From Chitinophagales bacterium (lineage in GTDB: Bacteria > Bacteroidota > Bacteroidia > Chitinophagales > UBA2359): 33,878 bases of DNA. The stretch's first letter is position 1, and each line of letters starts with the position of its first letter. The notes beneath the pieces are model-generated. The model was not told the origin of the DNA and ran no database searches. It was given only the letters and a program-made list of their open reading frames with translations. Shown one piece after another: positions 1 to 32,800 of this stretch. The stretch lies in contig JAEUUX010000091.1 of NCBI GenBank assembly GCA_016787295.1, positions 1 to 33,878 on the forward strand. Direction: 5' to 3'. The translations under genes were made by a program, and so were the position numbers.

Positions 1-345
1 AACCACCCAATAATCATAACCACCTTGGCTTGCTTCTGTTTGGTCTCCGAAAACGATAGAATTAGAATATCCTCCCAAAATATATCCACCATCTACGGTT
101 TGCTGAATACTAGTAAGCATATCATCATAATTTCCTCCAATAGTATTTTGCCATTCAATAGTACTAGTAGCAGATAATTTAACTATCCAGTAATCATAGT
201 AACTACTGGAACCTACTGCATTCTCTGTCTTATCACCCGAAATACTAGATTGCGAAGACCCTCCTAAAATATATCCTGCATCAGTAGTTTGTTGAATAGA
301 TTGCAAATAATCATTATTGCTTCCACCAATAGTATTTTGCGCGAT
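1..345 (-). repeat. Start of a second propeller-type repeat array in the subtilase
   Basis: After about 160 residues of PKD-like sequence, the same repeat restarts: one complete 189-bp unit (345-157, with the NAVGSSSYYDYW insertion also seen in the second unit of the first array) and a partial unit running off the edge. This suggests a second propeller downstream, outside the window. Confidence 0.85.
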
Positions 346-3300
346 AATCTCACTGGGAATACCGCAATTATTTAAATCGTTTAGTGTAATGTTTTTACAT
401 CTCGTAGTCATTCCACAATTATTTACAATCCCCTCTAAACAAACTTCATACGTCCCAACATTACTATAGATATGTTGAGTATTGGCACCACTATCATTGT
501 TACCATCTCCAAAATGCCAAACATAACTATTGGCACCAGAAGCCGAAAAATTGGCGGTCAAACCATCAGTGCTAATACTATATTCAACGAAGGGTTCAGT
601 AATAATAATCGTTTGGCTAAGGGTATCACTACATACCGCATTATTACCAATTAAGGTAATAGTATATTGTCCGCTTGTTTCAAAACTGTGGTTGAATTGC
701 ACATCATTACTCATAGGAATACCATCAATTAACCATTCGTAATGATTGGCATTTATGCTATAATTTAAGCAGGTAATCGTTTCTGATACGCAGGCATTGG
801 TAGGTATAGAAAAATCTGCATCTAAAGAATTAGTAATTGTATTAGTGGTTTTTAATACCCAATAATCGTAGTATCCTTGACACGTTTCTGTCTTGTCTCC
901 TAAGATATCCGAATCGGAATATCCACCCAACATATATCCACCATCAGTAGTTAATTGAATAGATCGAAGGTAGTCGTAATTATTTCCTTGAATGGTACGT
1001 TGCCATTGTATAGTACCAATAGGGGATATTTTAACTACCCAATAGTCATTAACTCCTTGTGTTACATCTGTCTTGTCACCTGATATTCCAGACGATGACG
1101 TACCTCCCAGTATGTACCCACCATCTATAGTTTGTTGAAAGGATGCTAAATAATCATTGTTGCTTCCTCCAATCGTATTTTGCCATTCAATAATACCTGT
1201 AGCCGATACTTTAACTACCCAATAATCATTAACTCCTTGTGATATTTCTGTCTTGTCACCTGATATACCAGAAGAAGAAGAGCCTCCCAAGATATAGCCA
1301 CCATCAGAAGTTTGTTGAATGGATTGGAAATAATCGTAGTTATTTCCGCCAATGGTATTTTGCCATTCAATAATACCTGTAGCCGATACTTTAACTACCC
1401 AATAATCATCATAACCTTGACTTGCTTCTGTCTTGTCACCTGAAATACCCGAAGTTGAATACCCTCCTAAAATGTATCCGCCATCGGCGGTTTGTTCAAT
1501 GGAGCGTAAATAATCATAATTGCTTCCTCCAATCGTATTTTGCCATTCACTTGAACCTGTGGCGGATAGTTTCACTACCCAATAATCAAAGGCTCCTTGT
1601 GCTACTTCTGTCTTGTCACCTGATATGCCAGACGATGACGTACCTCCCAGTATGTACCCCCCATCTACAGTTTGTTGAATGGATTCCAAATAATCGCTAC
1701 TACTTCCTCCAATCGTATTTTGCCATTCAATAGTACCCGTAGCAGATAATTTAACTATCCAGTAGTCATGGTAACTACTGGAACCTACTGCATTTTCTGT
1801 CTTATCGCCTGAAATATTTGACCTGGAATATCCTCCCAAAATATATCCACCATCAGCAGTCAGTTGTAGGTCGGTCAGACGATCCTCTCCACTTCCTCCA
1901 ATGGTTTTTTGGTTCTGTATGGTTCCATCTGCTGCCAATTTTACTATCCAATAATCAGTGCCTCCTTCATTATTGCCTGTTTTATCACCCGAAATATCGG
2001 AACTTGAACTACCACCCAAAATATATCCGCCATCATTAGTAGGACGAACAACCTCTAAATAATCACTGTAACTTCCACCAATAGTATTTTGCCATTCAAT
2101 AGGAGGAGCCGCATTACCACAATCAGTACTTAGGCTAACATTAATATCTTGGCAAGTTTGTAAGGTGTCGCAAACATTTTGAGCATTTAGACAGACGGTA
2201 TAGGTTCCCGCTGCGGTATAGGTATGTACCGCATTGCTATTGTTGCTCACGGGGCTATTGTCACCAAAGTTCCATGTATAAGTAACGCCTGTTGCCGCAG
2301 GCACAAAGAAAGCTGCGGAATAATTGTTACTATAATAGGTGAAATCGGCATCTAATGGTGCTACGCTATTGATAGTCTGATAGGTCGCATCGATGCAGTC
2401 ATTGTCTGTAGAAAAAAGTACTATGGTATGTGTGCCACCAGACGAAAAGTTATAGAGCAAGGGATTGGTGTATGTCGGAATAACCACCCCATCTACCGAC
2501 CATTGATAATTGCTGCCATTGGTGCTGGTATTGGTGAAAGTAATTTGGTCTCCTGAACAATTGGTAATAGAAGAAGCGATAAAAGTGGCATTATTGCTGC
2601 AACAATCAGCAATAGCTCGTGTTTTAAAGGCGTTTAAACGCCCACTCGTAGCGCAAATACCGTCAAAATTTGTTTGAACATCTACACTACTCAATAAATG
2701 GGTTTTCAAATCGGTATAACTTGGATGATTGCAATAAGACAAAGCCGCTACTCCTGTCACCAAAGCCGTAGCCAGAGAAGTGCCATTGAGCGAAGTGTAG
2801 GTATTGCCCGGTTTGGTGGTGTAAATATCTACTCCCGGTGCCAACAAATCAACATTATTGTACCCAAAACTCGAGAACGAGGCTAAATTGCCACTCACAC
2901 CACTTGCTCCCACACATACAATATTGTTAATCGGATAGTTGGCGGGATAAAAAGGATTGGTATCAATATTTACACTATTGTTACCCGAAGATGTTACAAA
3001 AAGTTGGTTGTGGGTAGCAGCATCTTGTATGGCATTCTGTAAAGCAACCGAAGCCCCTTCACCACCCCAGCTATTGTTGGTCATGGTGGCATTCATGGCA
3101 GTGGCATATCGCACCGCATCGGTGGCATTGGCAGTATAACCACCACCGTCGGAGTCTAAGTATTTGAGTGCCATCATTTTCACCGTCCAGCAAAGCCCAC
3201 TAATGCCTTGAGCGTTGTTGGCTTTGGCTCCAATGACACCTGCCATTCCTGTACCGTGTCCATTGTCGTCCATAGGGTTGTTGTCGTTGTTGACAAAGTC

Positions 3301-3966
3301 CCAACCAATAAAGTCGTCTTTATAGCCGTTGTTGTCGTTGTCGGTGCTGTCAATGTCACCAGGGTCAAATTGCCACACGCCCGCCACTAATTCGAGGACG
3401 TGTCCGTCACCATCTGCATCTTCGCCCATGTTTTGCCAGATATTGTCCACCAAATCGGCGTGTCGCCAATCGATACCAGAGTCAATAACACCCACCACCA
3501 CATCGTTACAGTCGTGGTTCATTGTCCAAGCGTCGGGAGCGTTGATGTGTTTGTTGGTGGGGTGAAACAATGACCACTGTTGGGCAAAACCGGGGTCGTT
3601 GGGTGTCGTTGCCATGTCGTAGCGATAGTTCGGCTCGGCAAACGCCAAATAAGGGTGCGGTTGTTCGCCAAAATGTTGGGCAATTGCCGCAGGGTCTGCC
3701 ATGCGTTGTTCGTTCAGGTACAACACATCGGGCAAGGCAACGACATATAAATTCGGGTTGTGCGTGGGGCTTATTTTGCCTACTTGTCCTTGCAACAATT
3801 CAGCGATGGTAGCTTCTGCTTGTTCGGTAGCAATAGCTTTGTTGAGTTGCAACACCAATTGATGGGGTGCATACTGTTTGTTGGGTGCGTTTTGTGCCAA
3901 AGCAACAAAAGCCATGAAAAAATAGCCGCAAATGGCAACTATGCGAAGCGGGGTAAGGCATTTCAT
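1..3966 (-). CDS. Secreted subtilisin-like (S8) serine protease with PKD domains and beta-propeller arrays, C-terminally cut by the window edge
   Basis: The frame is open from ATG at 3966 to base 1 (1,322 codons), so the C-terminus lies outside the window. Residues 1-24 look like a Sec signal peptide (hydrophobic core, ending ALAQ), followed by a propeptide-like stretch. The S8 catalytic triad is readable: Asp162 in VIDSGIDW, His237 in NGHGTGMAG and Ser397 in NGTSLATA; SSGNN carries the likely oxyanion Asn. After the protease come two PKD-like domains (about 2620-2120), seven propeller-type repeats (2097-829), two further PKD-like domains (828-346) and a second repeat array. Family knowledge: such Bacteroidota subtilases usually end in a T9SS sorting domain, which would be beyond base 1. 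The predicted role is an extracellular or surface protease; the substrate is unknown. The start is supported by the signal peptide and by a TAACTTTG element 25 bases upstream. The protease assignment is firm; the export route is inferred. Confidence 0.93.
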   Translation of the reverse strand, partial: MKCLTPLRIVAICGYFFMAFVALAQNAPNKQYAPHQLVLQLNKAIATEQAEATIAELLQGQVGKISPTHNPNLYVVALPDVLYLNEQRMADPAAIAQHFGEQPHPYLAFAEPNYRYDMATTPNDPGFAQQWSLFHPTNKHINAPDAWTMNHDCNDVVVGVIDSGIDWRHADLVDNIWQNMGEDADGDGHVLELVAGVWQFDPGDIDSTDNDNNGYKDDFIGWDFVNNDNNPMDDNGHGTGMAGVIGAKANNAQGISGLCWTVKMMALKYLDSDGGGYTANATDAVRYATAMNATMTNNSWGGEGASVALQNAIQDAATHNQLFVTSSGNNSVNIDTNPFYPANYPINNIVCVGASGVSGNLASFSSFGYNNVDLLAPGVDIYTTKPGNTYTSLNGTSLATALVTGVAALSYCNHPSYTDLKTHLLSSVDVQTNFDGICATSGRLNAFKTRAIADCCSNNATFIASSITNCSGDQITFTNTSTNGSNYQWSVDGVVIPTYTNPLLYNFSSGGTHTIVLFSTDNDCIDATYQTINSVAPLDADFTYYSNNYSAAFFVPAATGVTYTWNFGDNSPVSNNSNAVHTYTAAGTYTVCLNAQNVCDTLQTCQDINVSLSTDCGNAAPPIEWQNTIGGSYSDYLEVVRPTNDGGYILGGSSSSDISGDKTGNNEGGTDYWIVKLAADGTIQNQKTIGGSGEDRLTDLQLTADGGYILGGYSRSNISGDKTENAVGSSSYHDYWIVKLSATGTIEWQNTIGGSSSDYLESIQQTVDGGYILGGTSSSGISGDKTEVAQGAFDYWVVKLSATGSSEWQNTIGGSNYDYLRSIEQTADGGYILGGYSTSGISGDKTEASQGYDDYWVVKVSATGIIEWQNTIGGNNYDYFQSIQQTSDGGYILGGSSSSGISGDKTEISQGVNDYWVVKVSATGIIEWQNTIGGSNNDYLASFQQTIDGGYILGGTSSSGISGDKTDVTQGVNDYWVVKISPIGTIQWQRTIQGNNYDYLRSIQLTTDGGYMLGGYSDSDILGDKTETCQGYYDYWVLKTTNTITNSLDADFSIPTNACVSETITCLNYSINANHYEWLIDGIPMSNDVQFNHSFETSGQYTITLIGNNAVCSDTLSQTIIITEPFVEYSISTDGLTANFSASGANSYVWHFGDGNNDSGANTQHIYSNVGTYEVCLEGIVNNCGMTTRCKNITLNDLNNCGIPSEIIAQNTIGGSNNDYLQSIQQTTDAGYILGGSSQSSISGDKTENAVGSSSYYDYWIVKLSATSTIEWQNTIGGNYDDMLTSIQQTVDGGYILGGYSNSIVFGDQTEASQGGYDYWVV
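829..2097 (-). repeat. Seven 60-residue beta-propeller-type repeats inside the subtilase
   Basis: Seven consecutive units follow the pattern WQNTIGGSNYDYL...QTxDGGYILGG...SGDKTE...DYWVVKLSATG. The period is 180 bp. One unit, the second in protein order, has three extra residues, so the array spans 1,269 bp (7 x 180 + 9). Seven blades is the right number for one closed beta-propeller. The GG-x-DYG/DGGYI-type core resembles SBBP-like propeller repeats, but the fold is inferred. Neighbouring units are also similar at DNA level, which fits internal duplication. Confidence 0.9.
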
Positions 3967-4283: not shown

Positions 4284-4661
4284 GGACTAAAGAAAAACTT
4301 TAGGGGTATTTCTTCGGAAGAAAGGGGTCTAAAGAAAAACTTTAGGGGTATTTCTTCGGAAGAAAGGGGTCTAAAGGAAAACTTTAGGGGTGTTTCTTCG
4401 GGAGAAAGGGGTCTAAAGAAAAACTTCAGGGGTGTTTCTTCGGGAGAAAGGGGTCTAAAGAAAAACTTCAGGGGTGTTTCTTCGGGAGAAAGGGGTCTAA
4501 AGGAAAACTTTAGGGGTGTTTCTTCGGGAGAAAGGGGTCTAAAGGAAAACTTTAGGGGTGTTTCTTCGGAAGAAAGGGGTCTAAAGGAAAACTTCAGGGG
4601 TGTTTCTTCGGGAGAAATCGGACTAAAGGAAAACTTCAGGGGTGTTTCTTTGACAGTAATT
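4284..4661 (+). repeat. 42-bp tandem repeat array, eight full units plus one degenerate unit
   Basis: Units start at 4284, 4326, 4368, 4410, 4452, 4494, 4536, 4578 and 4620. The last loses similarity after about 32 bases. A typical unit begins GGTCTAAAG, continues through CTTTAGGGGT and ends TTTCTTCGG(A/G)AGAAAGG. Differences between units are almost all at four positions, each with two alternative bases that differ by a transition. The plus strand is open across the array (14-residue unit GLKENFRGVSSGER; frame 4248-4664, but only a TTG start). One minus-strand frame is open too (unit PLSPEETPLKFSFR), so open frames alone do not show coding. The sequence can fold as CTAAAG-loop-CTTTAG and TTTCTT-loop-AAGAAA in several units. 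There are no unique spacers, so it is not CRISPR. It lies between the start of the subtilase and the end of a peroxidase gene. Confidence 0.95.
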
Positions 4662-4754: not shown

Positions 4755-6125
4755 TTATGGAATGATTTGCGTTACCTGAATAGTACCCGTCGTGCCACCT
4801 GTCCAACGCACTGTGCAGTTGGTGTCGTTGGCACCGCAACCCGAAACAAGGACATAACTTCCCACAATATTCCACAAATAAGTCGTGCCTGCTTCGTTGG
4901 GAGTGATGCTATAGGTAATAGGTTCGTTGACACAAACCTCGCTTTGTCCAACAATGGCAGGAACGCAAGTATTCAAGCAAAAAGGATTGCTCCAGCGTTC
5001 GTCTGTGGTAATGGTGGTATCGGTGAGGGTTTGTAGGAATGCCACTAATGCTTGTTTTTCGGTGGGTGTATAATGAATAATTCGCGGCGGGCAAGTGTTG
5101 CAAGGATTATTGTTGGGGTCAACGGTTCCCGGTAAAATTTCTCGCAAGAAACCCGATAGATTAGGGTGAGCTTTGATGGAGTCGCTATAAAAATCGACCA
5201 CTTCTTCCAAAGTATTGAAACGTCCATCGTGCATATAAGGCGGCGTAAGTGCTACATTGATGAGCGAAGGCACGCTGAATTGTCCGTTTTTATTGGTATT
5301 TCCTGTGACAGCCCCCACACCATTATCGGCATACACCAAATCTAAGCCAATGTTCTTTGTTCCTTGCTGTACCATGACGTTGCGGGTGTGGCAGGCTTGA
5401 CAATTGCCACGATATTCGTCCATAAACAAATCTTTACCCAAATTTTCTTGCGCTGTAAAATTGGCAAAAGGTGTGGTAGCGGGATTGCCGTTGGTGGCAT
5501 TGACACCTTCTCTGAATTTTGACCCAAAAGTGTTCATGCTGCGCACAAATTGCGCTAAGGCACGAGCAATTTTGTCGGGTGTAACGTCGGGTGTGCCAAA
5601 GGCATTTTGGAATAAAGATGGATAAAACGATTTGGCAGCTATGCGACTGACCAAAGTGTCTAAGCTTAAACCCATTTCTATTGGGTCTTGAATAGGCATT
5701 AGGGCTTGTGCCTCCAAAGATGGGGCGCGGTTGTCCCAAAAGAAAGCGGCATCTTTCTGGAAACGCGCATGTATCAAACCCATCGAGTTGCGTGTGCCTA
5801 ATTGTCCGTTGAAGCCAACACTGAAGCGTGCGGTATCGCTAAACGAAAATTGTTGTATGTGGCAAGAGGCACACGAAACGGTGTGATTTTGCGATAAATC
5901 TTCGTCATAAAACAGCACCCTTCCGAGTGTAGCACCCGCATCGGTTGTTGGGTTGGCAGTGGGCATATTGTCCATTTCTGTAAGGTTGTTCACAATGTCA
6001 GATGGAAAGACAATGTTGGCATAATTTAATAAAGTGGCGGGTAATTGGATACACCCATAGTCTATGAGTTCGAAAGCCGTTAAGGTCAAACAAAGACAAC
6101 TTAAAATCCATAGTTTTTTGTTCAT
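4755..6125 (-). CDS. Di-heme cytochrome c peroxidase (MauG/CcpA family) with C-terminal PKD-like domain
   Basis: A protein of 456 residues. A hydrophobic N-terminus (residues 5-19) suggests export. Two c-type heme motifs are visible, CASCH (85-89) and CQACH (242-246), with family landmarks LGRVLFYDEDLS, FWDNRAPSLEAQA (129-141) and PYMHDGRFNTLEEVVDFY (296-313). Known family members reduce hydrogen peroxide or oxidise protein substrates in the periplasm. After the catalytic part (about residue 380) comes a Cys-rich linker and a PKD-like domain (VCVNEPITYSI...YLWNI...GTIQVTQ). The protein then stops without the T9SS sorting domain that often follows such tails. A terminator follows the stop, and no TAnnTTTG was found in the 173 bases upstream. 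A second, differently built di-heme peroxidase lies at 13254-14624. Confidence 0.9.
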   Translation of the reverse strand: MNKKLWILSCLCLTLTAFELIDYGCIQLPATLLNYANIVFPSDIVNNLTEMDNMPTANPTTDAGATLGRVLFYDEDLSQNHTVSCASCHIQQFSFSDTARFSVGFNGQLGTRNSMGLIHARFQKDAAFFWDNRAPSLEAQALMPIQDPIEMGLSLDTLVSRIAAKSFYPSLFQNAFGTPDVTPDKIARALAQFVRSMNTFGSKFREGVNATNGNPATTPFANFTAQENLGKDLFMDEYRGNCQACHTRNVMVQQGTKNIGLDLVYADNGVGAVTGNTNKNGQFSVPSLINVALTPPYMHDGRFNTLEEVVDFYSDSIKAHPNLSGFLREILPGTVDPNNNPCNTCPPRIIHYTPTEKQALVAFLQTLTDTTITTDERWSNPFCLNTCVPAIVGQSEVCVNEPITYSITPNEAGTTYLWNIVGSYVLVSGCGANDTNCTVRWTGGTTGTIQVTQIIP

Positions 6126-16717: not shown

Positions 16718-16749
16718 TTTGGTGGAACAAAAAAAACACCATACCTTTG
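16718..16749 (+). promoter_or_regulatory. Promoter of the candidate small RNA
   Basis: TTTG (16718-16721) and TACCTTTG (16742-16749) with 20 bases between make a textbook Bacteroidota promoter. It is preceded by two 21-bp direct repeats (from 16678 and 16699), each with a GTAAAAAAATGC core in a poly-A run. No open reading frame of note follows. Confidence 0.75.
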
Positions 16750-16812
16750 TCCCAGCGAGTTGGGGGTAGTGATTTGAAGGAGGATACCCCGTAAAAAGGG
16801 TATCCTTTTTTT
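16750..16812 (+). ncRNA. Candidate small RNA of about 60 nt, defined by promoter and terminator
   Basis: Transcription from the promoter at 16718-16749 should begin near 16752-16756. The predicted RNA has a small 5' hairpin (CCCA 16751-16754 with TGGG 16761-16764), a linker containing GAAGGAGG (16776-16783) and a terminator stem AGGATACCC (16781-16789) / GGGTATCCT (16798-16806) followed by a T-run to 16812. The next gene downstream lies on the opposite strand, so this is not a leader. I do not recognise a known RNA family. Existence is inferred from the two signals; the function is unknown. Confidence 0.55.
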
Positions 16813-16857: not shown

Positions 16858-16896
16858 CAAAACCTCCGCCCTGATAAAAGTCAGGACGGAGGTTTT
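16858..16896 (-). terminator. Terminator of asd
   Basis: The arms at 16858-16874 and 16881-16896 (core CCTCCG...CTGA / TCAGGACGGAGG) form a long stem. The single mismatch is C-A on the plus strand but a G-U pair in minus-strand RNA, which fits termination of asd, whose stop is at 16925. Confidence 0.75.
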
Positions 16897-16924
16897 TGGG
16901 TGCAAACAATATGAAAAAACACCA

Positions 16925-20813: not shown

Positions 20814-23800
20814 ATGAAAAAACCCATTACATTTTCATCAAAGGGCGTGCCAATTGCAAGAGGTATTCCGCGAACAATGCGGCTGTGTGTACTATTAATA
20901 ATAAGTATACTCGGTTGGCTTGGTTTGGGTAATGCTGAACTTTCGGCGCAGATTTCTGTCACAGCAACTGCTGGAACAGTAGGACCTACAACCTACACTA
21001 CCCTTAATGCTGCCTTGGCTGCTATTAACGCAGGCACACACCAAGGAGCAGTTATTGTTAACATTAATGCCAATACAACAGAAGGTACAGCAACCTGTCT
21101 TCTCAATGCAAGCGGAGCAGGATCAGCTCTTTATACTTCTGTTTTAATTAGACCTACTATAGATAATGCTGTAGTGTCTGGCGCACCTACATCTTTAAAT
21201 TTAATTACATTAAACGGTGCAGACAATGTAACAATTGATGGTGATAACCCAAATACAGCATGTGTTAATCGAAATCTAACTTTCCAAAATACCTTAGCTA
21301 ATACAACTGCCAATACATCAGTAATACGGTTAGCAGCTACGGCATCACCTGGGTTAGGAGCCGATAACAACACCATTAAAAATTGTAATATCATAGGCAA
21401 TGGAAATACAGGTACAGCTACTACTTCCCCTGTCAATGCTGCCTTTGGTATTTATGCAGGAACTGCTCACACGAATGCTACAACAGCTCCTACTACAGGC
21501 ACAACTGTAGGAGGAACAAGTACCTCTTATACCAATTTATTAATTGACAATAATACGATTACTACTTGTGGACGTGGTATTCAAATTGGAGGTAGTGCTG
21601 CAACCGCTTGTAATAATTTAAGAATTACTAATAACATAATAGGTAGTAATACTGCTGCAAACTATGTTACTAGTTTTGGTATTAATATTGCAGGAGCCAC
21701 CGCAGCACTTATATCCGGCAATACAGTATTTAATATCATTAATGGAGTTGGGAGCAGTAATATGACACATGGTATTGCCGTTAATGCAATCAATCCTACT
21801 GCTACTGATGTAGTGGTAACCAAAAATATTGTTAATACAGTAACTTGTACAAGTACAAGTGGATTTGCAGCTCGTGGAATTTCACTTAATGGAGCTAATA
21901 ACCACATAGTAAGTCAAAACTGTATTACCAATGTTACCAACGTTACTGCAGGTAGTTTTAATGGTAATTTTAGTGCAGGAGCTATTTGGATAACAACAGG
22001 AACAGGGCATAAAATATACAACAACTCCGTTAATACTACCCAAACCGTTAATGGCGTAAGTAGCGGTACTGTTTCTGCATTGCATATAATCACAACTGGC
22101 TCTACAGGAATGGATATTAGAAATAATATCTTTTCGATGCAATCTGCCACAACAGGCACAGGGGCAGTGTTAGCATGTATTACTATGCCTTCAGGAGGAA
22201 CCTCCGCTATGGCACTTACCCTAAATAATAATGCTTATTACGCATCGGGTGCTAATCTTATCGCTCAAGTAGGAACAACTGTTGGTACAGGCAACTACAC
22301 CGCAGCTAATTTCGTGCAAGGTGCCACAACACCCGCCACAAATTTGCGCGCCTATACATCAACATTAGGTACAAGTACCAACGACAACGCATCATGGGCA
22401 TTTTCCACCGCAGCACCTTTTACAAGTGCCACCGACCTACACATTCCAAACGGTACCACTACTGCATTGGAGTCGGGTGGTGCCGTACTAACAGGCATTT
22501 CTCCTGAGATGGACAATGACATTCGTCCAGGTCCTCGTTATAGCCTAAATGGTGGTGGTATTACACCCGATATTGGTTGTGATGAGTTTGACGGTTATAG
22601 AGCAGGTTGCAGTACTTTGCCCACAGCAAGTATCGCAGCTTCTCCTGTGTCTGGCTCTACTTGTGCAAATGTTAATCCAAACAAGGTCACACTTACTGCT
22701 TCCGGAGGAACTACCTACGATTGGTCACCAAGTACTGGTTTAAGCGCCATTACAGGAGCCACCGTAGATGCCACACCTACTTCTACTACCATATATACTG
22801 TTACCGTAACAGACGCATCAGGTTGTAAAGCAACTGCTACACAATTGGTAGATGTGCCAATCAACCTTACTGTAACAGCTACTCCTACTTCTGTTTGTGC
22901 AAGTAGCCCTAATACGCAATTATTAGCAGCCGTGTCAGACAGTTGCAGTTACTACAAAATGAGTAGCATTACTCACGCACCCATTGCCGACCCTGGCGGC
23001 TCCACCACCATTAGCACATGGACAGGTGACTCTAACGATGGTGCATCAACAGCAATAGCACTGCCATTTACTTTCAAGTATTATTGTAATGATTATACCA
23101 ATGTATATGTAAGTAATAATGGCTATATTAGTTTCAACGATTTGTCTACCTTAACCTCTACCGAAAGCAAAACTGCCCAGACCATTGTTTCTTCAGGCAA
23201 TCCAAACAATCTTATTGCTTTGTGTATGTCTGATTTAAATGTTGGAGCAGGCGGAACTATCAAATACTATACAACAGGTTCTACACCGAATAGAGTATTT
23301 GTTGTAGATTTTGCCAATGTTCCTTTTGCAACTTGTGCAGGTTCGGTAAGTGGTCAAATCCAATTGTATGAAACAACCAACAATGTAGAAGTACACATTA
23401 CCAACGTAACACATGGTACTGCTACCTACTACAATACAATGGGTATCGAAAATAGTAGCGGCACAGTGGGTGCATCGCCTTATTCGCGCAACAACACTCG
23501 TTGGGACGCAACTGGCGAAGCATGGCGTTTTGAGTATTCACGCCTTACTTATGCTTGGGCATCTGACCCAACTTTAAGCGCTACCAATATCAAAAACCCT
23601 ACTGCGAATAACCTAACTGCAACCACTACCTATACTGTTACTGTAACAAGTAGTAATGGTTGCACAGCCACACGTTCTATCACAGTATCGTTTGCTGGTT
23701 CAATTACCTTGTCACCAACAGCCACACCTGCTACTATCTGCGCAGGTCAAAGTTCTACTTTGGCAAGCGGAGCAACAGGAGGTAGCGGAACGTATTCATA

Positions 23801-26800
23801 TACGTGGAATAATGGAGTGAGCGACTTTTCTACTTTGGAAAGCCCTGTAGTAGCACCCACGGTCACCACCACCTATACCGTGACCGTTAGCGACAACTGT
23901 TCGCCCGCTAATAGTTCCACAGCAACCGTAACTGTAACTGTTAACCCATTGCCTAATGCAGCAATAGCACCCACCACACCTTTGATTTGTGGTACAGGTA
24001 GTGTTACACTTACGGCTTCAGGCGGCAGTACTTATGCGTGGTCTCCAAGTACAGACTTAAGCGCTACAAACACAGCCATAGTAACTGCCTCTCCCACCAG
24101 CACCACAACTTACACAGTAACGGTGACAAGTGCAGCAGGCTGTAGTTCAACGACAAGCGTGACAGTAACAGTATCGCCAAACTATTCTATTATTGCATCT
24201 GCAACACCCACAACGGTGTGCTCTGGTGCCAATTCACAATTGAATGTTTCAGCGGGTACCACACCTACCTATACTGTTGCTGCCAATACCTTAACTCCTT
24301 ATAGCACAACAGGTTTAACAGCAGGTACATATACTACCGTTCCTAATGGTGATGATGCAGTTTCCAATTCCGTTCCAATTGGTTTTAACTTTAGTTTTTA
24401 TGGCAATACCTATACCACTTTCCAAGTTAGTACCAATGGTAATATTCAATTTGGAGGTAGTGCCTCTAATGCATGGACACCAGCTACTATTCCCGCAGCG
24501 GCTGTACCTAACAATTACATTGCCTTGGCATGGCGCGACTGGACATCGGTTGTTACTGGTGAAATCAATTATTATACAACAGGCACAGCACCTGACCGAG
24601 TTTTAATAGTAGATTTTAACGATGCAGGTAATTATGTAGGTCAAATTATACTACATGAAACAACCAATGTTGTAGATATCATAAGCACCAATATCGGAAC
24701 TAATACAAGTGTGCAAGGGGTGGAAAATTCTACAGGAACAGCGGGCGTTGCGGCTCCTTCCCGCAATAATGTTAGTTGGTCTTCTACAGCCGTTAGTTCC
24801 TATACTTTTACACCTTCTTTTACAGGTGGAACATATACCTATCTTTGGTCGCCAACTACTTATATAGTAGGACAAGAGACAACAAGCAATCCATTAGCAA
24901 CTGTTGTGACTGCTACAACAACCTATACTGTGACAGTTACAGATGCGTTGGGTTGTACAAAAACAGCAAGCGTAACAGTTACGGTTGCTCCGCTTGCTGC
25001 TACCCCAACTGCCACACCCACCACCATCTGCGCGGGGCAAAGTAGTACCTTAGCAGCAGGAGCTACAGGTGGCGGGGCTCCATACACCTATCTTTGGAGT
25101 ACATCTGGTACAGCAGCAAGTATCACGGTAACGCCCACCACCACCACCACCTATACTGTAACAGTAAGTGATAATTGTGGTGCCACAGCAACAGGAACAA
25201 TTGCTGTAACTGTTAATCCGCTACCAACAGCTACCATAACAACTAATAGTCCCATTTGTGCAGGAAGCGATTTGAACTTAACCCTCACTTCAGATGGTTC
25301 TACCTTCAGTTGGGCAGGTCCAAATAGCTTTACCTCTGCCTTGCAAAGTCCAACTATTACCGCTGCCACAACAGCAGCTACTGGTACTTATACTGTGACA
25401 GTAACCTCAACGGCGGGTTGTACAATAACAGCTACTACAGCAGTTGTAGTCAATCCTTTGCCTGCTGTTACTGCATTGGCATCACCAACTATAGTCTGTT
25501 CAGGAAGTTCATCAACACTTACCGCTATACCGGGTGTTGTGCTACCAATTACTACCTATACTCCAGCAAGTATCGCGTATGCACCCGTTGCTGTGCCAGG
25601 TACGGGAGTAACCACATTGTGCAACAATGCTGTAGCGACAGTAGCACTATCGAGTGGAACCCTTGATGATGGACGCTGGAACAATATAGCATTGCCATTT
25701 AGTTTCCCATTCTTTAGCAGCACCTATACAACCGTCGGCATAGGAACAAATGGTGTTATCGGTTTTGGCGGTGATTTAGCTACTAATGGTGGCTATGGAA
25801 ATGCTATGCCTTCTGCAACCATACCTAATAACATCTTTGCTGCCTTTTTTACCGACTTAGATATGGATACCGCACCTCTTGGAGGTATCAGTTATTGGAC
25901 AGATGGCACTGCCCCTAATCGTCGTTTCATTGTTAACTATAATGACGTTGATTTTTTTAGTAACACTGGAAGCATAAGTATTCAGGCTATAATCTATGAA
26001 AATGGAAAATTGGAAACTTATGTAAACGCACCCACTCCTGATACTGATAATGCTGTTATTGGTGTAGAAAATCCTACAGGTACTGTGGCTTTTACAGCAA
26101 CAGGTATCAATAATGTGGCTTCTAACACCTTAACGTATCCTTTAGCTTGGAGTTTTACACCAGTACAACCTACTTTTACCTACGCATGGAGTGACCCAAC
26201 TAATGCAACAACCACCAGCGTAAGTGTAACGCCAACAGCTACTACTACCTATACGGTGACAGTTACTAATGCAAATACAAACTGTTCTACTACCGCAACT
26301 GTAACGGTTAATGTACCTACCATTACAGCTTCAAGCAATAGTCCTATTTGTGCAGGAAGTGACCTTAACCTCACTTCAAGTCCTGCAAGTGCAACTACTT
26401 ATGCTTGGGCGGGACCTAATAGCTTTACATCATCTGTACAAAATCCAACTATTACTGCCGCTACTACCGCGGCTGCTGGTACTTATACTGTTACGGTTAC
26501 AAGTGCAGCTACGCCAACCACTGGTTGTACTGCCACCACCACAGTAGTAGTAAATACACCAATTACCGCACCTACCTTATCTGGCGCAACCTATTGCGTT
26601 GGTGCTACCGCCACCGCTTTAGATGCAACAACGACCGGTGCAACAGCATATTTGTGGAGTGATGGTTCAGCTACTGCTAGCATTACGCCATCTACTGCAA
26701 CTGCTGGCACAACGACCTATACCGTTACTGTATCAGCACCGACAGGCTGTACTGCTGTAACAGCAACTGCTACTATAGTAGTAAATACACCAATTACCGC

Positions 26801-29800
26801 ACCTACCTTGACTGGTACAACCTACTGCGTTGGTGCTACCGCCACCGCTTTAGATGCAACAACGACTGGTGCAACGGCATATTTGTGGAGTGAAAGTTCC
26901 ACGACAGCAAGTATTACGCCCTCTACGGCAACTGCTGGTACAACAACCTACACCGTTACCGTATCTGCACCGACAGGCTGTACGGCTGTAATGGCAACTG
27001 CTACTATAGTAGTAAATGCACCAATTACCGCACCTACCTTGACTGGTACAACCTATTGCGTTGGCGCTACTGCCACCGCTTTAGATGCAACAACGACCGG
27101 TGCAACGGCATATTTGTGGAGTGAAAGTTCCACAACAGCAAGCATTACGCCATCTACGGCAACTGCTGGCACAACGACCTATACCGTTACTGTATCAGCA
27201 CCGACAGGCTGTACTGCTGTAACAGCAACTGCTACTATAGTAGTAAATGTACCAATTACCGCACCTACCTTGTCTGGTACAACCTACTGCGTTGGTGCTA
27301 CCGCCACCGCTTTAGATGCAACAACGACTGGTGCAACAGCATATTTGTGGAGTGATGGTTCAGCTACTGCTAGCATTACGCCATCTACTGCAACTGCTGG
27401 TACAACGACTTATACCGTTACTGTATCAGCACCGACAGGCTGTACTGCTGTAACAGCAAGTGCTGCTATAGTTGTAAATGCACCAATTACCGCACCTACC
27501 TTGTCTGGTACATCGTATTGTGTTGGTGCTACGGCAACCGCTTTAGATGCAACAACGACCGGTGCAACGGCATATTTGTGGAGCGAGAGTTCAACAACAG
27601 CAAGCATTACGCCATCTACGGCAACTGCTGGCACAACAACCTACACTGTTACCGTATCTGCACCGACAGGCTGTACTGCTGTAACAGCAAGTGCAACAAT
27701 TGTAGTGAATGCTAATCCAAGCATTGTGTCTATCACTAATACACCAACAGGTTGCTCAAGTCCATCTGGTACTGCAACCGTGAGTGTATCAGGCGGCACA
27801 AGCCCCTACACTTATTTGTGGAGTAATAGTCAAACTACCGCAATAGCAAATGCTTTAGGAGTAGCCACTTATACTGTCACTGTTAGCGATTCTAATACTT
27901 GTTCGACAACAGGTACAACAACCATCGCAGCAGCAGGCGCACCTATTGCAACAGCTACTCCTTCACCTGCTTCGTTGACTATTTGTCAAGGAGGTGCTAT
28001 TAGTGTAACTTTCGACGTTACCAATGCTTTTGTGGGTGAAAAATTTGCTGTTTCGTTTGATATTGTTTCTTCGTCTGGTGCAATACCTTATGGAACATTG
28101 AACAACAATGCAACTTTTACTGTTGGTCCATTTACCGAAGGCGTATTGTTCGGAGGTAATGTAACTTTGCAAAATATAGTAATTACCAGCCAAACGAGCA
28201 ATTGTTCTGTAGCATTATCGAATATCAGTTTTACAGTTAATCCTAAACCCGTAGTAAGTGTTCCTACTACTACTGTTTGCTTTGGTGCTACAAATGGCAC
28301 TTTGACTGCTAATGTTACAGGTAGTACTGCTACGCCATTTACCTATTCATGGAATAATACCCAAACTACTAATCCTGCTACAGGTTTAGCTGCGGGTAGT
28401 TATACTGTTACTGTAACAGACAGTAATACTTGCTCTGCAACCGCTTCTGGCACAGTAACACAACCTACCTCTGCTTTAGCTGCTGCTCCCACTACCACAG
28501 GCACAACTTGTAATGGTAGTACAGGTACAGCCACTGCTAATGCAACAGGTGGTACAAGTCCATATACCTATAGTTGGAGCAATGGACAAACCTCAGCCAC
28601 AGCGACAGGTTTAGCTGCAAGTACCTATACGGTTACTGTAACAGATGCGAATAGTTGTACAACTACAGCCACCGCAACTGTTACTAACACTACCAATCCA
28701 CCTGTAGCTTCGGCTACACCATCGTCAACTGCTATTTGTGAAGATGCTAGCTTCAATGTTAGCTTTACTTCTGACCAAAACTTCAATGTTTCTATGACAT
28801 TGAACTCTTCTTCTGGTTCATTCTTATATGGAGCTAACAATAAAGCCTCTGGTTTTACAACGCCTAACTTTACCGAAGGTGTATTGTTTGATGGTACTGT
28901 AACCATAACAGGTATTACTATCACAAGTGTTTCCACAGGTTGTATTACTACGCTACCTGATATTACAGTAACAGTTAATCCAAAACCAACAGCTACTGTA
29001 AGCACCACACCAACTTGTTTTGGTAGTACCAATGGTACTGCAACTGTCAATGCAAGTGGTGGTACACCTACCTATACTTATATATGGAATACAACCGCAA
29101 CTACCCAAACCATTACTGCTTTGGGTCCTGCTACCTATTTTGTAACAGTTAGCGATGCTGCAAATTGTACCGCTACAGCAAGTGGTAATGTTATTCAGGG
29201 GGCAAGCCTAACTGCTACTACAGCTACTACAAGTGTAAGTTGTTTTGGTGGCAATGATGGTACTGCCACTGTTACTCCAACAGGCGGAATCTCACCATAT
29301 ACATACAATTGGAGTAATGGTCAAACAACTGCTACAGCTACCAATCTAACTGCTGGTAGCTACTTGGTAACTATTACAGATGGAGCTACTTGCTCTACTG
29401 TTGCCAACGTAACCGTAGCACAACCAGCCGCTGCCTTAGCTACTGGAACGCCTACCACAACTCCACGAACTTGTACTGCTGCTGATGGTACTGCCACTGT
29501 TGCACCAACAGGTGGTACAGCACCTTATACCTATAGTTGGAGTAATGGTCAAACAACTGCAACAGCTACTGGTTTGAACAATACCAACTATAATGTTACT
29601 GTTACAGACTCCAAAGGTTGCACAGCAGTAACTTTTGCAACAGTAGGTATTACACCTAATCCTACTCCGGGAGCAAGCAATAATAGTCCTGTTTGTGCGG
29701 GTAGCGACATTTCTCTGACTGGTACAGGCGGAACAAGCTATGCTTGGAGTGGTCCAAGTGGATTTACCTCAAGCAGCAACCCTGCTACCTTGACAGCAGT

Positions 29801-32800
29801 GACAGCAGCTATGACCAACAATATCTATACTGTAACAGTTACAGATGCTAATGGTTGTACTGCCTCTACTACTACCCAAATTACTGTATATCCACTTCCT
29901 GTTGCTACAGCGACTAACAATGGTCCAGTATGTCCTGGTAGTGATATTACTCTTACTGCGACAGGTGGAACAAGTTATGCTTGGAGTGGTCCAAATGCTT
30001 ATACAGCAACAGGTACACCTGCAACCCTTAGTGCTGTGACATACGCACAAAATGGCGAAGTATATACCGTTACTGTAACCGATGCAAATGGTTGTACAAA
30101 AACTGCCACCACAACCATCGTTGTAAATCCACAACCCGCCGCCCCAATTACAACTGACAAAGCTATTTGTCAAAACGAAGTATTGGGAATAGGGCAAGGC
30201 TTAACCGCTTCGTCGCCTGGTTTAATATTCGCTTCTTCAACAAGTAGTGTAAGTGCGAGCAACACTACCAACGGTGCTTCGTTTGGCACAACATATCCGG
30301 GTACTCCTATGAGTGTAGTTTTCCCCGCTGCTGGCGCATCCGGTGGTGTTCCAGTAGGTGCCACAGTGACAGGAGTGACCGTCAATATTACCTATACAGC
30401 CATCAATGGTTCGTGGATGAGTGAGTTGCGCACCCTCGTAACACCTCCAGCGGGCTACAATGCACAAGTAAATGACATTCAACCTAAAACAGCGGCTAAC
30501 GTAGCCCCTGGTGGTAGTAGCGGTACCTTTACAGGTTTAATTGACCCCAACAGTAACCCAACTACGGCTCCGGCTTGGCCCGCTGCTAACCCTGCGGGTA
30601 CATGGACATTTGATTTCCGTGAAACTTTTGATGATGGTGGAACATCTGTACAAGATGCCAATATCACCAATATCACCATTGTAGCTAATTATAGTTTGAC
30701 CCAAAATGCCACACTTACTTGGTGGGACGCTACAACAGGTGGGACACAAGTAGCAAGTGGCGCACCATTCAATCCAACTACAGTTCCTGTAGCTTCAGGT
30801 GGTGTGGATAATACTGTAATCGGTTCTACTACTTATTATGCACAAGTAACAAGTTTGACAACAGGTTGTACAAGTGACCGTAGTGCCGCTGTCTTTACTG
30901 TAGACCCACCAGCCTCTGCTGATGCAGGTGCCGATATCGTTTGTGTTGATGGCGCAACACCTATTAGTGTTTCGGGCGTATTTGGTGGTACAGCAAGTTC
31001 AGGTACTTGGTCAACCTCTGGTACGGGAACATTCTCCAATGTACAAACAAGTGGTACAACAGTAACTGCCGACTACACCCCAAGTGCCGCTGATATTGCA
31101 GCAACCTCTGTTACATTGACCTTTACTACTGACGACCCAGTTGGCGGTTGTGTGGCAGCAAGTGATAATTTAACGGTGTCATTCATTCCTACAGCAGCCA
31201 CTACAAGCAACTATTCAACTTGTCCGTATGTAGCTCCGCCTACAGGACAAGGCTTGAGTGCAACTTGCCCAAGTACTTTGCCAGCAATAGCAGGAGGTGC
31301 AACAATTTTTGCCAACGGACCAATAGATGTTGAAACTGCAAGTAATGCGTTTTCTTTAAATACCTTATCAATTCCGGTTACAACAGCTAATATACCTGCC
31401 AATGCTACGGTAACGGGTGTAGTAGCCCGTGTTACTTACACAGCATTTAGTGCTTCGTGGACAGCCGACCTTACCGTGCGTGTAACGCCACCCGCAGCCG
31501 TAGGTGCCGCCCGCACAAGTACAAGCATAACAGGCGAAATTAATGGAGCAGGCTCTTTAACTGATGCCGTTATTAACCTTGGTGCAGGTACTTGGAACTT
31601 AGCAGGCTCTAATCCACAAGGCAACTGGTTATTCGAGTTTGCCGATGAGTTTAACGACACTGTTAACCCCGATGAAACAGTTACCAATGTAAGCCTTGTA
31701 TTTACTTATACTACTCCGGCTATCACACCTACATGGTGGACAGCCGCATCGGGTGGCACACAGGTAGGCTCGGGTGGTATATTCGACCCAACGATGGTAG
31801 CTCTCCCTGATGGAGTAGACATTACGCAAGTAGGTACTACTACATATTATGCACAATGTACATCTCCTAATGGTTGCTCAAGCACACGTACCGCTGCTGA
31901 TTTCATTATCGAAAGCGCTATTGTAATAGATGCAGGTGCTGACCAAAACTGTTTGGCAAGCACAACAACTACTATTAACTTATCCGGTTCGGTAAGTGGT
32001 TTGGGTGTAACAACTGGTACATGGAGCGGCGGCACAGGTATTTTTGCTGATGCTACAAGCCTAACTACCACCTATACCCCAACAACAACTGAAATAGAAG
32101 ACGGTTATATTGTATTAACTTTAACATCTGGTGACCCTGCTGGTCCTTGTGGTCCTGTAAGCGATCAAATTATTATCACTTTCAATCCACCAGCTCCAAC
32201 AGCAATAGATTATACCATCTGTCAGTATGATATTGTACCATCAGGTGAGGGTTTAGATGCAACTTGTCCTTCTCGCCCTCCAACTCCTGCTATATCAGGT
32301 AACATAACAGGTTCAGGCACAGGCGGTACTTCTAGTGCTACAACTTATGGGGGGGCAGGTAATAATCCTATTTATGTAGATATTCCAAGTGGCTCGTTAC
32401 CTACGGGTGCTATTGTTAATAGCGTAACCGTAACAACAAGTTATACTGCTTTGGGATCTTCTTTCCTTAGTGAATTGCGTGTTCGTGTAACGCCCCCTGC
32501 TCAGTTTGGGGCTGTACAAACGGATATTCAATTAAGCACAAATACTTTCGCAGGCATTCTTGCCAATGTTCCTACTGGCACATTTGCAGCCTTAGACCCT
32601 GCTGGTTTATGGACATTTGATTTCCGTGAAACCTTTGATGATACTAATGCTGGATTTAGTGGAACAGATGCAAGCATAGACAATATTACTGTTACTGCCA
32701 ACTATACTATTCCTGCTGATCCGGGTATTACTTACCAAGTTAATTGGTGGGATGCAGCCACAGGAGGTAATTTATTGGCTTCTAATGTAGATCCATTTAA

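What the first reader, a model, noticed from the sequence alone, without database searches (positions are those of the whole stretch)
16718..16812. Orphan small-RNA unit with a GGAGG linker
A textbook TTTG-N20-TACCTTTG promoter is followed within about 60 bases by a canonical terminator, and nothing downstream on that strand needs a leader. The predicted RNA has a 5' hairpin and exposes GAAGGAGG, which is Shine-Dalgarno-like in a phylum that rarely uses such sites and partly overlaps the terminator stem. A role in titrating the anti-SD or binding a C-rich target is speculative.
Basis: partly seen in the sequence, partly recalled or inferred. Interest (0 to 1): 0.6.

Follow-up and report, generated by a model that had tools for sequence, protein, structure and literature searches.

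The report
Multicopy 5'-seed small RNA family
The sequence is one of eight copies in this genome of a previously unlisted small-RNA gene family whose first ~20 bases are identical across several bacterial genera while everything around them has changed, which points to a regulatory RNA that recognises its partners with its 5' end.

Summary
The promoter and terminator are real, but the unit is no orphan and the GGAGG linker is not its conserved part. The genome holds eight copies: five (window included) with housekeeping promoters (TACCTTTG) and three diverged copies with an ECF-sigma-like promoter (TGTGAC-N15/16-GTCTTA). Fifteen more copies occur in nine genomes of the same family (six other genera); all have an ECF-like promoter. 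What is conserved is the predicted RNA 5' end: GAGTTGAGTGTAGTGATTTGAA is 100% identical in representatives of seven genera, while far flanks are 27% identical and terminators 22-29%. Both promoter classes place the predicted start at or next to this block. No Rfam match; one family only; no shared synteny. Best reading: a trans-acting sRNA family with a 5'-terminal seed plus intrinsic terminator, ancestrally ECF-controlled, partly rewired to constitutive promoters here. It resembles Bacteroides FopS in layout and sigma-E-dependent sRNAs (RybB/MicA, FoxI/FoxJ) in regulation. Targets were sought and not found. Expression, start site and cognate sigma factor are untested. New family of a known kind.

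The parts
16718..16721 (+). -33 element TTTG of a Bacteroidota housekeeping (sigma-ABfr type) promoter
   Evidence: consensus TTTG / TAnnTTTG as given in PMC7366714. Present in four of the five housekeeping-type copies.
16742..16749 (+). -7 element TACCTTTG
   Evidence: kept in all five housekeeping-type copies, 6-7 bases before the GAGTTG block.
16757..16778 (+). Conserved 5' block of the predicted RNA (here GAGTTGGGGGTAGTGATTTGAA, two changes from the family sequence GAGTTGAGTGTAGTGATTTGAA); proposed seed; predicted RNA start about 16755-16757
   Evidence: Invariant over seven genera. Start position is inferred from promoter spacing, not measured.
16776..16783 (+).
16782..16812 (+). Intrinsic terminator: GGATACCC, 8-base loop, GGGTATCC, T7
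   Evidence: replaced by unrelated terminators in relatives

Best explanation
A gene for a ~56-58 nt regulatory small RNA, one of eight paralogues in this genome and one member of a family detected only in one bacterial family. Shown by comparison: a free-standing unit of promoter, ~20-nt invariant 5' block and intrinsic terminator, without shared neighbours. Inferred: the RNA starts at or next to the invariant block and uses it as a seed to base-pair with mRNAs in trans, probably changing their translation or stability; the terminator only ends and protects the RNA. In relatives, and for three copies here, transcription is inferred to depend on an ECF sigma factor recognising TGTGAC-N15/17-CGTCT, so the RNA would be the noncoding arm of an envelope-stress-like response. 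In this genome five copies, the window's among them, stand behind strong tRNA-type housekeeping promoters, which would make part of the RNA pool constitutive. Hfq was not found in the family, so an RRM protein (RbpB-like) is the likeliest partner protein (inference).
For: Eight own-genome copies. 22-nt block with 0-1 mismatches in 9 other genomes and 0 matches to reversed-pattern controls; 100% identity against 27% far flanks and 22-29% terminator over seven genera. ECF-like promoter in 18 of 18 non-housekeeping copies (one, G006:C176, with GTTAC instead of GTGAC), spacer 15-17, and 17-18 bases from the start of the CGTCT-type motif to the GAGTG core. Motif TGTGACY-N14/16-CGTCTWW in seven genomes: 12 hits, 0 controls; the six not at this RNA all lie 25-140 bases upstream of a protein start, including an ECF sigma gene in this genome and a DUF3078 protein in a relative. 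No common neighbours for most copies. Housekeeping and ECF promoters both place the start at the same block. No Hfq in 20 of 20 genomes, RRM proteins in 17 of 20. Same layout as FopS, which bind mRNAs with a single-stranded 5' seed (PMC11697453).
Against: No transcript evidence. No target found: 11-nt antisense matches do not lie at gene starts, TonB-receptor start regions show no enrichment over shuffled cores, and 15-nt antisense matches (about 176 non-family hits against 113 reversed-pattern controls) gave no recurrent target among 40 regions inspected. Mean predicted unpairedness of the core is only 0.62. The ECF sigma gene with the matching promoter here does not keep a clear version of it in relatives, so the cognate sigma is unknown. 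Ten of 20 genomes of the family lack a detectable copy.
Confidence: 0.68

Rival explanations
1. The conserved 5' block is a binding site for a protein (for example an RRM protein), so the RNA is a protein sponge or protein-bound RNA that does not pair with mRNAs.
For: No mRNA target was found. The whole ~20-nt block is invariant, longer than many pairing seeds. RRM proteins are present in 17 of 20 genomes, and RbpB binds single-stranded 5' parts of FopS (PMC11697453).
Against: RRM proteins are also present in genomes that lack the RNA. FopS shows that protein binding and mRNA pairing can coincide. The target searches were limited and could easily miss short imperfect seeds.
Confidence: 0.17
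2. An anti-SD decoy, or a binder of C-rich sites, acting through the GAAGGAGG linker.
For: AAGGAGG is complementary to the usual 16S rRNA 3' end (established knowledge); the linker is kept in five copies of this genome.
Against: Linker changed in every copy outside these five while a terminator is kept; paired in the predicted fold; [quoted passage not shown] coli (PMC8710568).
Confidence: 0.03
3. A DNA-level repeat or mobile element, not an RNA gene.
For: Several copies per genome at unrelated places.
Against: Identity stops at the ends of the predicted transcript; promoters differ in kind but keep their distance to the block; terminators differ in sequence but persist. No phage, plasmid or viral match.
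Confidence: 0.04
4. Chance coincidence of a promoter-like and a terminator-like pattern.
For: Either pattern alone is near chance level in the window.
Against: 23 copies in ten genomes share the same arrangement, with zero hits for control patterns.
Confidence: 0.01

Closest known systems
FopS (family of paralogous sRNAs) of Bacteroides thetaiotaomicron
   Same: Multicopy sRNAs, most of them intergenic, of about 65-70 nt; [quoted passage not shown] sigma-ABfr promoters; same phylum (PMC11697453).
   Different: No Rfam family matched the window unit, though I could not confirm that FopS is in that release and did not align the two directly. The family here has mostly ECF-like promoters and is about 56-73 nt. 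RbpB binding and SusC targets are untested here, and TonB-receptor start regions showed no enrichment.
Sigma-E-dependent sRNAs RybB and MicA (enterobacteria)
   Same: ECF-type promoter directly before a short RNA with a conserved 5'-terminal seed and a terminator (layout from established knowledge; sigma-E-dependent omp mRNA decay, PMC1804206).
   Different: No Hfq in these genomes. Cognate sigma and targets unknown. Up to eight copies, some with housekeeping promoters.
FoxI and FoxJ of Fusobacterium nucleatum
   Same: ECF (sigma-E) controlled sRNAs outside Proteobacteria (PMC11005410).
   Different: FoxJ is about 156 nt and its likely seed is a C-stretch; the RNA here is under 75 nt with an invariant, C-free 5' block.
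LhrC1-7 (Listeria), Cia-dependent sRNAs (Streptococcus), Qrr (Vibrio)
   Same: Multicopy paralogous sRNAs (as summarised in PMC11697453).
   Different: Other hosts and regulators; no sequence relation known or found by the Rfam scan.

Membership tests
FopS sRNA family | Matches the family by sequence/structure (an Rfam entry is reported by its authors) | tested here: inconclusive
   No Rfam family reached its threshold for the window or, apart from two tRNAs, for seven related loci, and none of the E<=10 matches was FopS; not confirmed that FopS is in this Rfam copy.
[quoted passage not shown]
   Layout seen in the copies folded; core mean unpaired 0.62; block invariant. This is likeness of architecture, not homology.
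FopS sRNA family | Canonical sigma-ABfr promoter | tested here: met
   Met for the window copy and four other own-genome copies (one of these without the TTTG element); not for the three ECF-type copies here nor for the 15 in relatives.
FopS sRNA family | Binds RbpB and represses SusC-like mRNAs | not testable with these tools
   RRM proteins exist in 17 of 20 genomes; duplex scan of 29 TonB-receptor starts gave no enrichment.
ECF-sigma-dependent sRNA (RybB/MicA-like) | ECF-type promoter placing the start at the seed | tested here: inconclusive
   Met in form by 18 copies (GTGAC/GTTAC-N15/17-CGTCT-type motif 17-18 bases before the GAGTG core; strict motif 12 hits against 0 controls in seven genomes). 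Not met by the window's own copy, which has a housekeeping promoter.
ECF-sigma-dependent sRNA (RybB/MicA-like) | Loss of transcription without the cognate sigma factor | not testable with these tools
   A candidate ECF gene with the same promoter exists here (G000:C246), but its best homologues in relatives lack a clear version of the motif.
ECF-sigma-dependent sRNA (RybB/MicA-like) | Hfq-dependent pairing with omp mRNAs | tested here: not met
   No Hfq in 20 of 20 genomes, while control genomes rang. Omp pairing not demonstrated.
Anti-SD decoy RNA | Conserved, exposed SD-like sequence | tested here: not met
   Linker differs in all copies outside the five own-genome housekeeping-type ones and is paired in the predicted fold.

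The most novel reading that the evidence does not exclude
An ECF-controlled, Hfq-independent sRNA family forming the noncoding arm of an envelope-type stress response in Bacteroidota, in which the promoter class was exchanged in one lineage (ECF to housekeeping, with copy expansion) while the RNA 5' end was kept almost to the base.
Probability: 0.45. Interest if true: 0.7.

Novelty: new member of a known kind. Interest (0 to 1): 0.52.

Why it matters
Most of what the papers retrieved here report on sRNAs in Bacteroidota comes from the gut genus Bacteroides, and none of them describes a family under an ECF sigma factor in this phylum. A family with a perfectly conserved 5' end, freely changing terminators and two alternative promoter classes separates the part that matters (the 5' ~20 nt) from what only terminates the RNA. 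It also offers a natural promoter-swap experiment: presumably stress-controlled in relatives, presumably constitutive in this genome.

Tried and rejected
Rfam at gathering and E<=10 thresholds: nothing credible; the best hit, RsaA (27.1 bits against a cut-off of 50), looks like a chance fit. Riboswitch/attenuator reading (GGGGTA pairing with TACCCC as an anti-terminator): considered because the window copy can fold that way when cut short, rejected because the GGGGG is a private change of this copy (GAGTG in the others) and no downstream gene exists. tRNA or tmRNA: none in the window. Phage, plasmid or viral origin: no match. Wider distribution: no convincing member in 178 other-family genomes of the order; the weak hits inspected lie in coding-like sequence or are promoter-only, and one 2-mismatch hit (G086) also looks coding. 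Conserved neighbours: none for most copies. Targets: exact 11-mers, TonB-receptor start regions, 15-mers with 2 mismatches, none convincing. Identity of the cognate ECF sigma: candidate in this genome, not supported by promoter conservation in relatives.

Full report
Observation. The promoter elements TTTG (16718-16721), a 20-base spacer and TACCTTTG (16742-16749) are present, followed by an intrinsic terminator (16782-16812). By themselves these patterns are near chance level in the window (3 promoter matches, 1.4 expected; 5 terminator-like sites, 4.6 expected). The 57-nt RNA folds better than shuffles (z -3.4), almost all of it from the terminator. No Rfam family, tRNA or tmRNA matches. The next gene, asd, lies on the other strand.

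Not an orphan. A search of the window's own genome found four further full copies (C41 twice, C293 twice), all with TACCTTTG 6-7 bases before GAGTTG and with the same linker and terminator stem. Partial hits covering only the first ~50 bases are the shared strong promoter, which also precedes tRNA-Met, tRNA-Gln and tRNA-Cys genes. A covariance model of the five copies then found three more, diverged, copies in the same genome (C29, C292, C46) and copies in relatives.

What is conserved. In nine other genomes of the same family (six other genera) the 22-mer GAGTTGAGTGTAGTGATTTGAA recurs with 0-1 mismatches, with no match to the reversed-pattern control. G010 and G015 each also hold a second copy that diverges after GAGTTGAGTGTAGT. 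Over seven genera (one copy each) the block is 100% identical, far flanks 27%, and the terminator region 22-29%. Over all copies the invariant core is TGAGTGTAGTRATT, except that the window's own copy has TGGGGGTAGTGATT. The linker is GAAGGAGGAT only in the five own-genome housekeeping-type copies; elsewhere GAAGTAGGAT, GAAATGATTT, AAAGATTTTT or GAAGTAGCAT. In the predicted fold GGAGG is paired into the terminator stem, and the 5' hairpin is not robust.

Two promoter classes. The 18 copies without a housekeeping promoter (15 in relatives, 3 here) have GTGAC, in one case GTTAC, then 15-17 bases, then a CGTCT-type motif (CGTCT, GTCT, CGTAT or CGTCA), with 17-18 bases from that motif to the GAGTG core. 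This has the form of an ECF-sigma promoter (inference from general knowledge of ECF consensus sequences). The strict motif gave 12 hits and 0 controls in seven genomes; the six hits not at this RNA each lie 25-140 bases upstream of a protein start, among them an ECF sigma gene in this genome and a DUF3078 protein in a relative. The nearest homologues of that ECF gene in relatives do not keep a clear version of the motif, so the cognate sigma is not identified. Both promoter classes place the expected start at or next to the same base, which is what one expects if the RNA's 5' end is the functional part.

Distribution and context. Named records with the core are unnamed Bacteroidetes/Sphingobacteriales assemblies (UBA2322, TSM_CSM 8, TSM_CSS 12, several numbered MAGs). 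None was found convincingly outside this family in 178 other genomes of the order with the model, nor with the 22-mer in 278 (one coding-like 2-mismatch hit). The exact core is absent from viral contigs, and the window unit has no match in phage or plasmid records. Neighbouring genes differ between most copies.

Mechanism. A short RNA with an invariant 5' end and an exchangeable terminator is the architecture of FopS in Bacteroides, whose 5' seed binds near start codons of SusC-like mRNAs (PMC11697453), and (established knowledge) of the sigma-E sRNAs RybB and MicA. I infer seed pairing in trans. Hfq was not found in 20 of 20 genomes; RRM proteins are in 17. Target searches failed: no recurrent antisense site, and TonB-receptor start regions are no better than for shuffled cores. 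The 15-mer antisense search showed more hits than its reversed control (about 176 against 113 after removing family copies), but base composition or further diverged copies could explain this, and 40 inspected regions gave no recurrent target. A protein-binding role therefore remains open.

Verdict. A real sRNA family (my confidence about 0.9 from comparison alone), most probably a 5'-seed regulator (about 0.7), most probably ECF-controlled outside the five housekeeping copies (about 0.75). The anti-SD interpretation is not supported.

Noticed in passing
window 20814-33878 (+): Reading frame of at least 4355 aa running off the window end, with internal tandem repeats (231-base unit at 26545-27712; 228-base unit at 33437-33878): a giant repetitive protein.
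   Followed up: no
window 1-3966 (-): Another long open frame (at least 1322 aa) running off the window start, with about 180-base repeats at 885-1769.
   Followed up: no
window 4287-4650: Tandem array of a 42-base unit, 8.7 copies, 95% matches, beside the gene at 4755-6125.
   Followed up: no
window 16861-16897: Strong, nearly symmetrical inverted repeat (AAAACCTCCGCCCTGA / TCAGGACGGAGGTTTT) between the sRNA and asd, able to act as a terminator in both directions.
   Followed up: no
L285:126-420 (G000:C212): Two tandem units, 141 bases apart, each with a TTTGG ... TACCTTTG promoter-like pair followed by TATGCTATATGCAACCAAGAGGTGTTATGTTATG (second copy TACGC...): possibly another small transcribed unit of this genome.
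   Followed up: partly
L160 (G000:C246:77783-77812, -): ECF sigma factor gene preceded by both a TATCTTTG housekeeping-type element and TGTGACC...CGTCTTA, suggesting autoregulation.
   Followed up: partly
L084:610 and L085:1389: In G010 and G015 a second sRNA copy lies about 175-216 bases downstream of the first; it diverges after GAGTTGAGTGTAGT (AATTTTTTCAGTAG), a possible specialised subfamily.
   Followed up: partly
L070:4128-4185 (G000:C77:39128-39185, -): Degenerate relative AGTGTTTGAAGTAGTGTTGTTTTGAAGGAGGGTACCC with a terminator-like hairpin but no recognisable promoter; perhaps a decayed copy.
   Followed up: no
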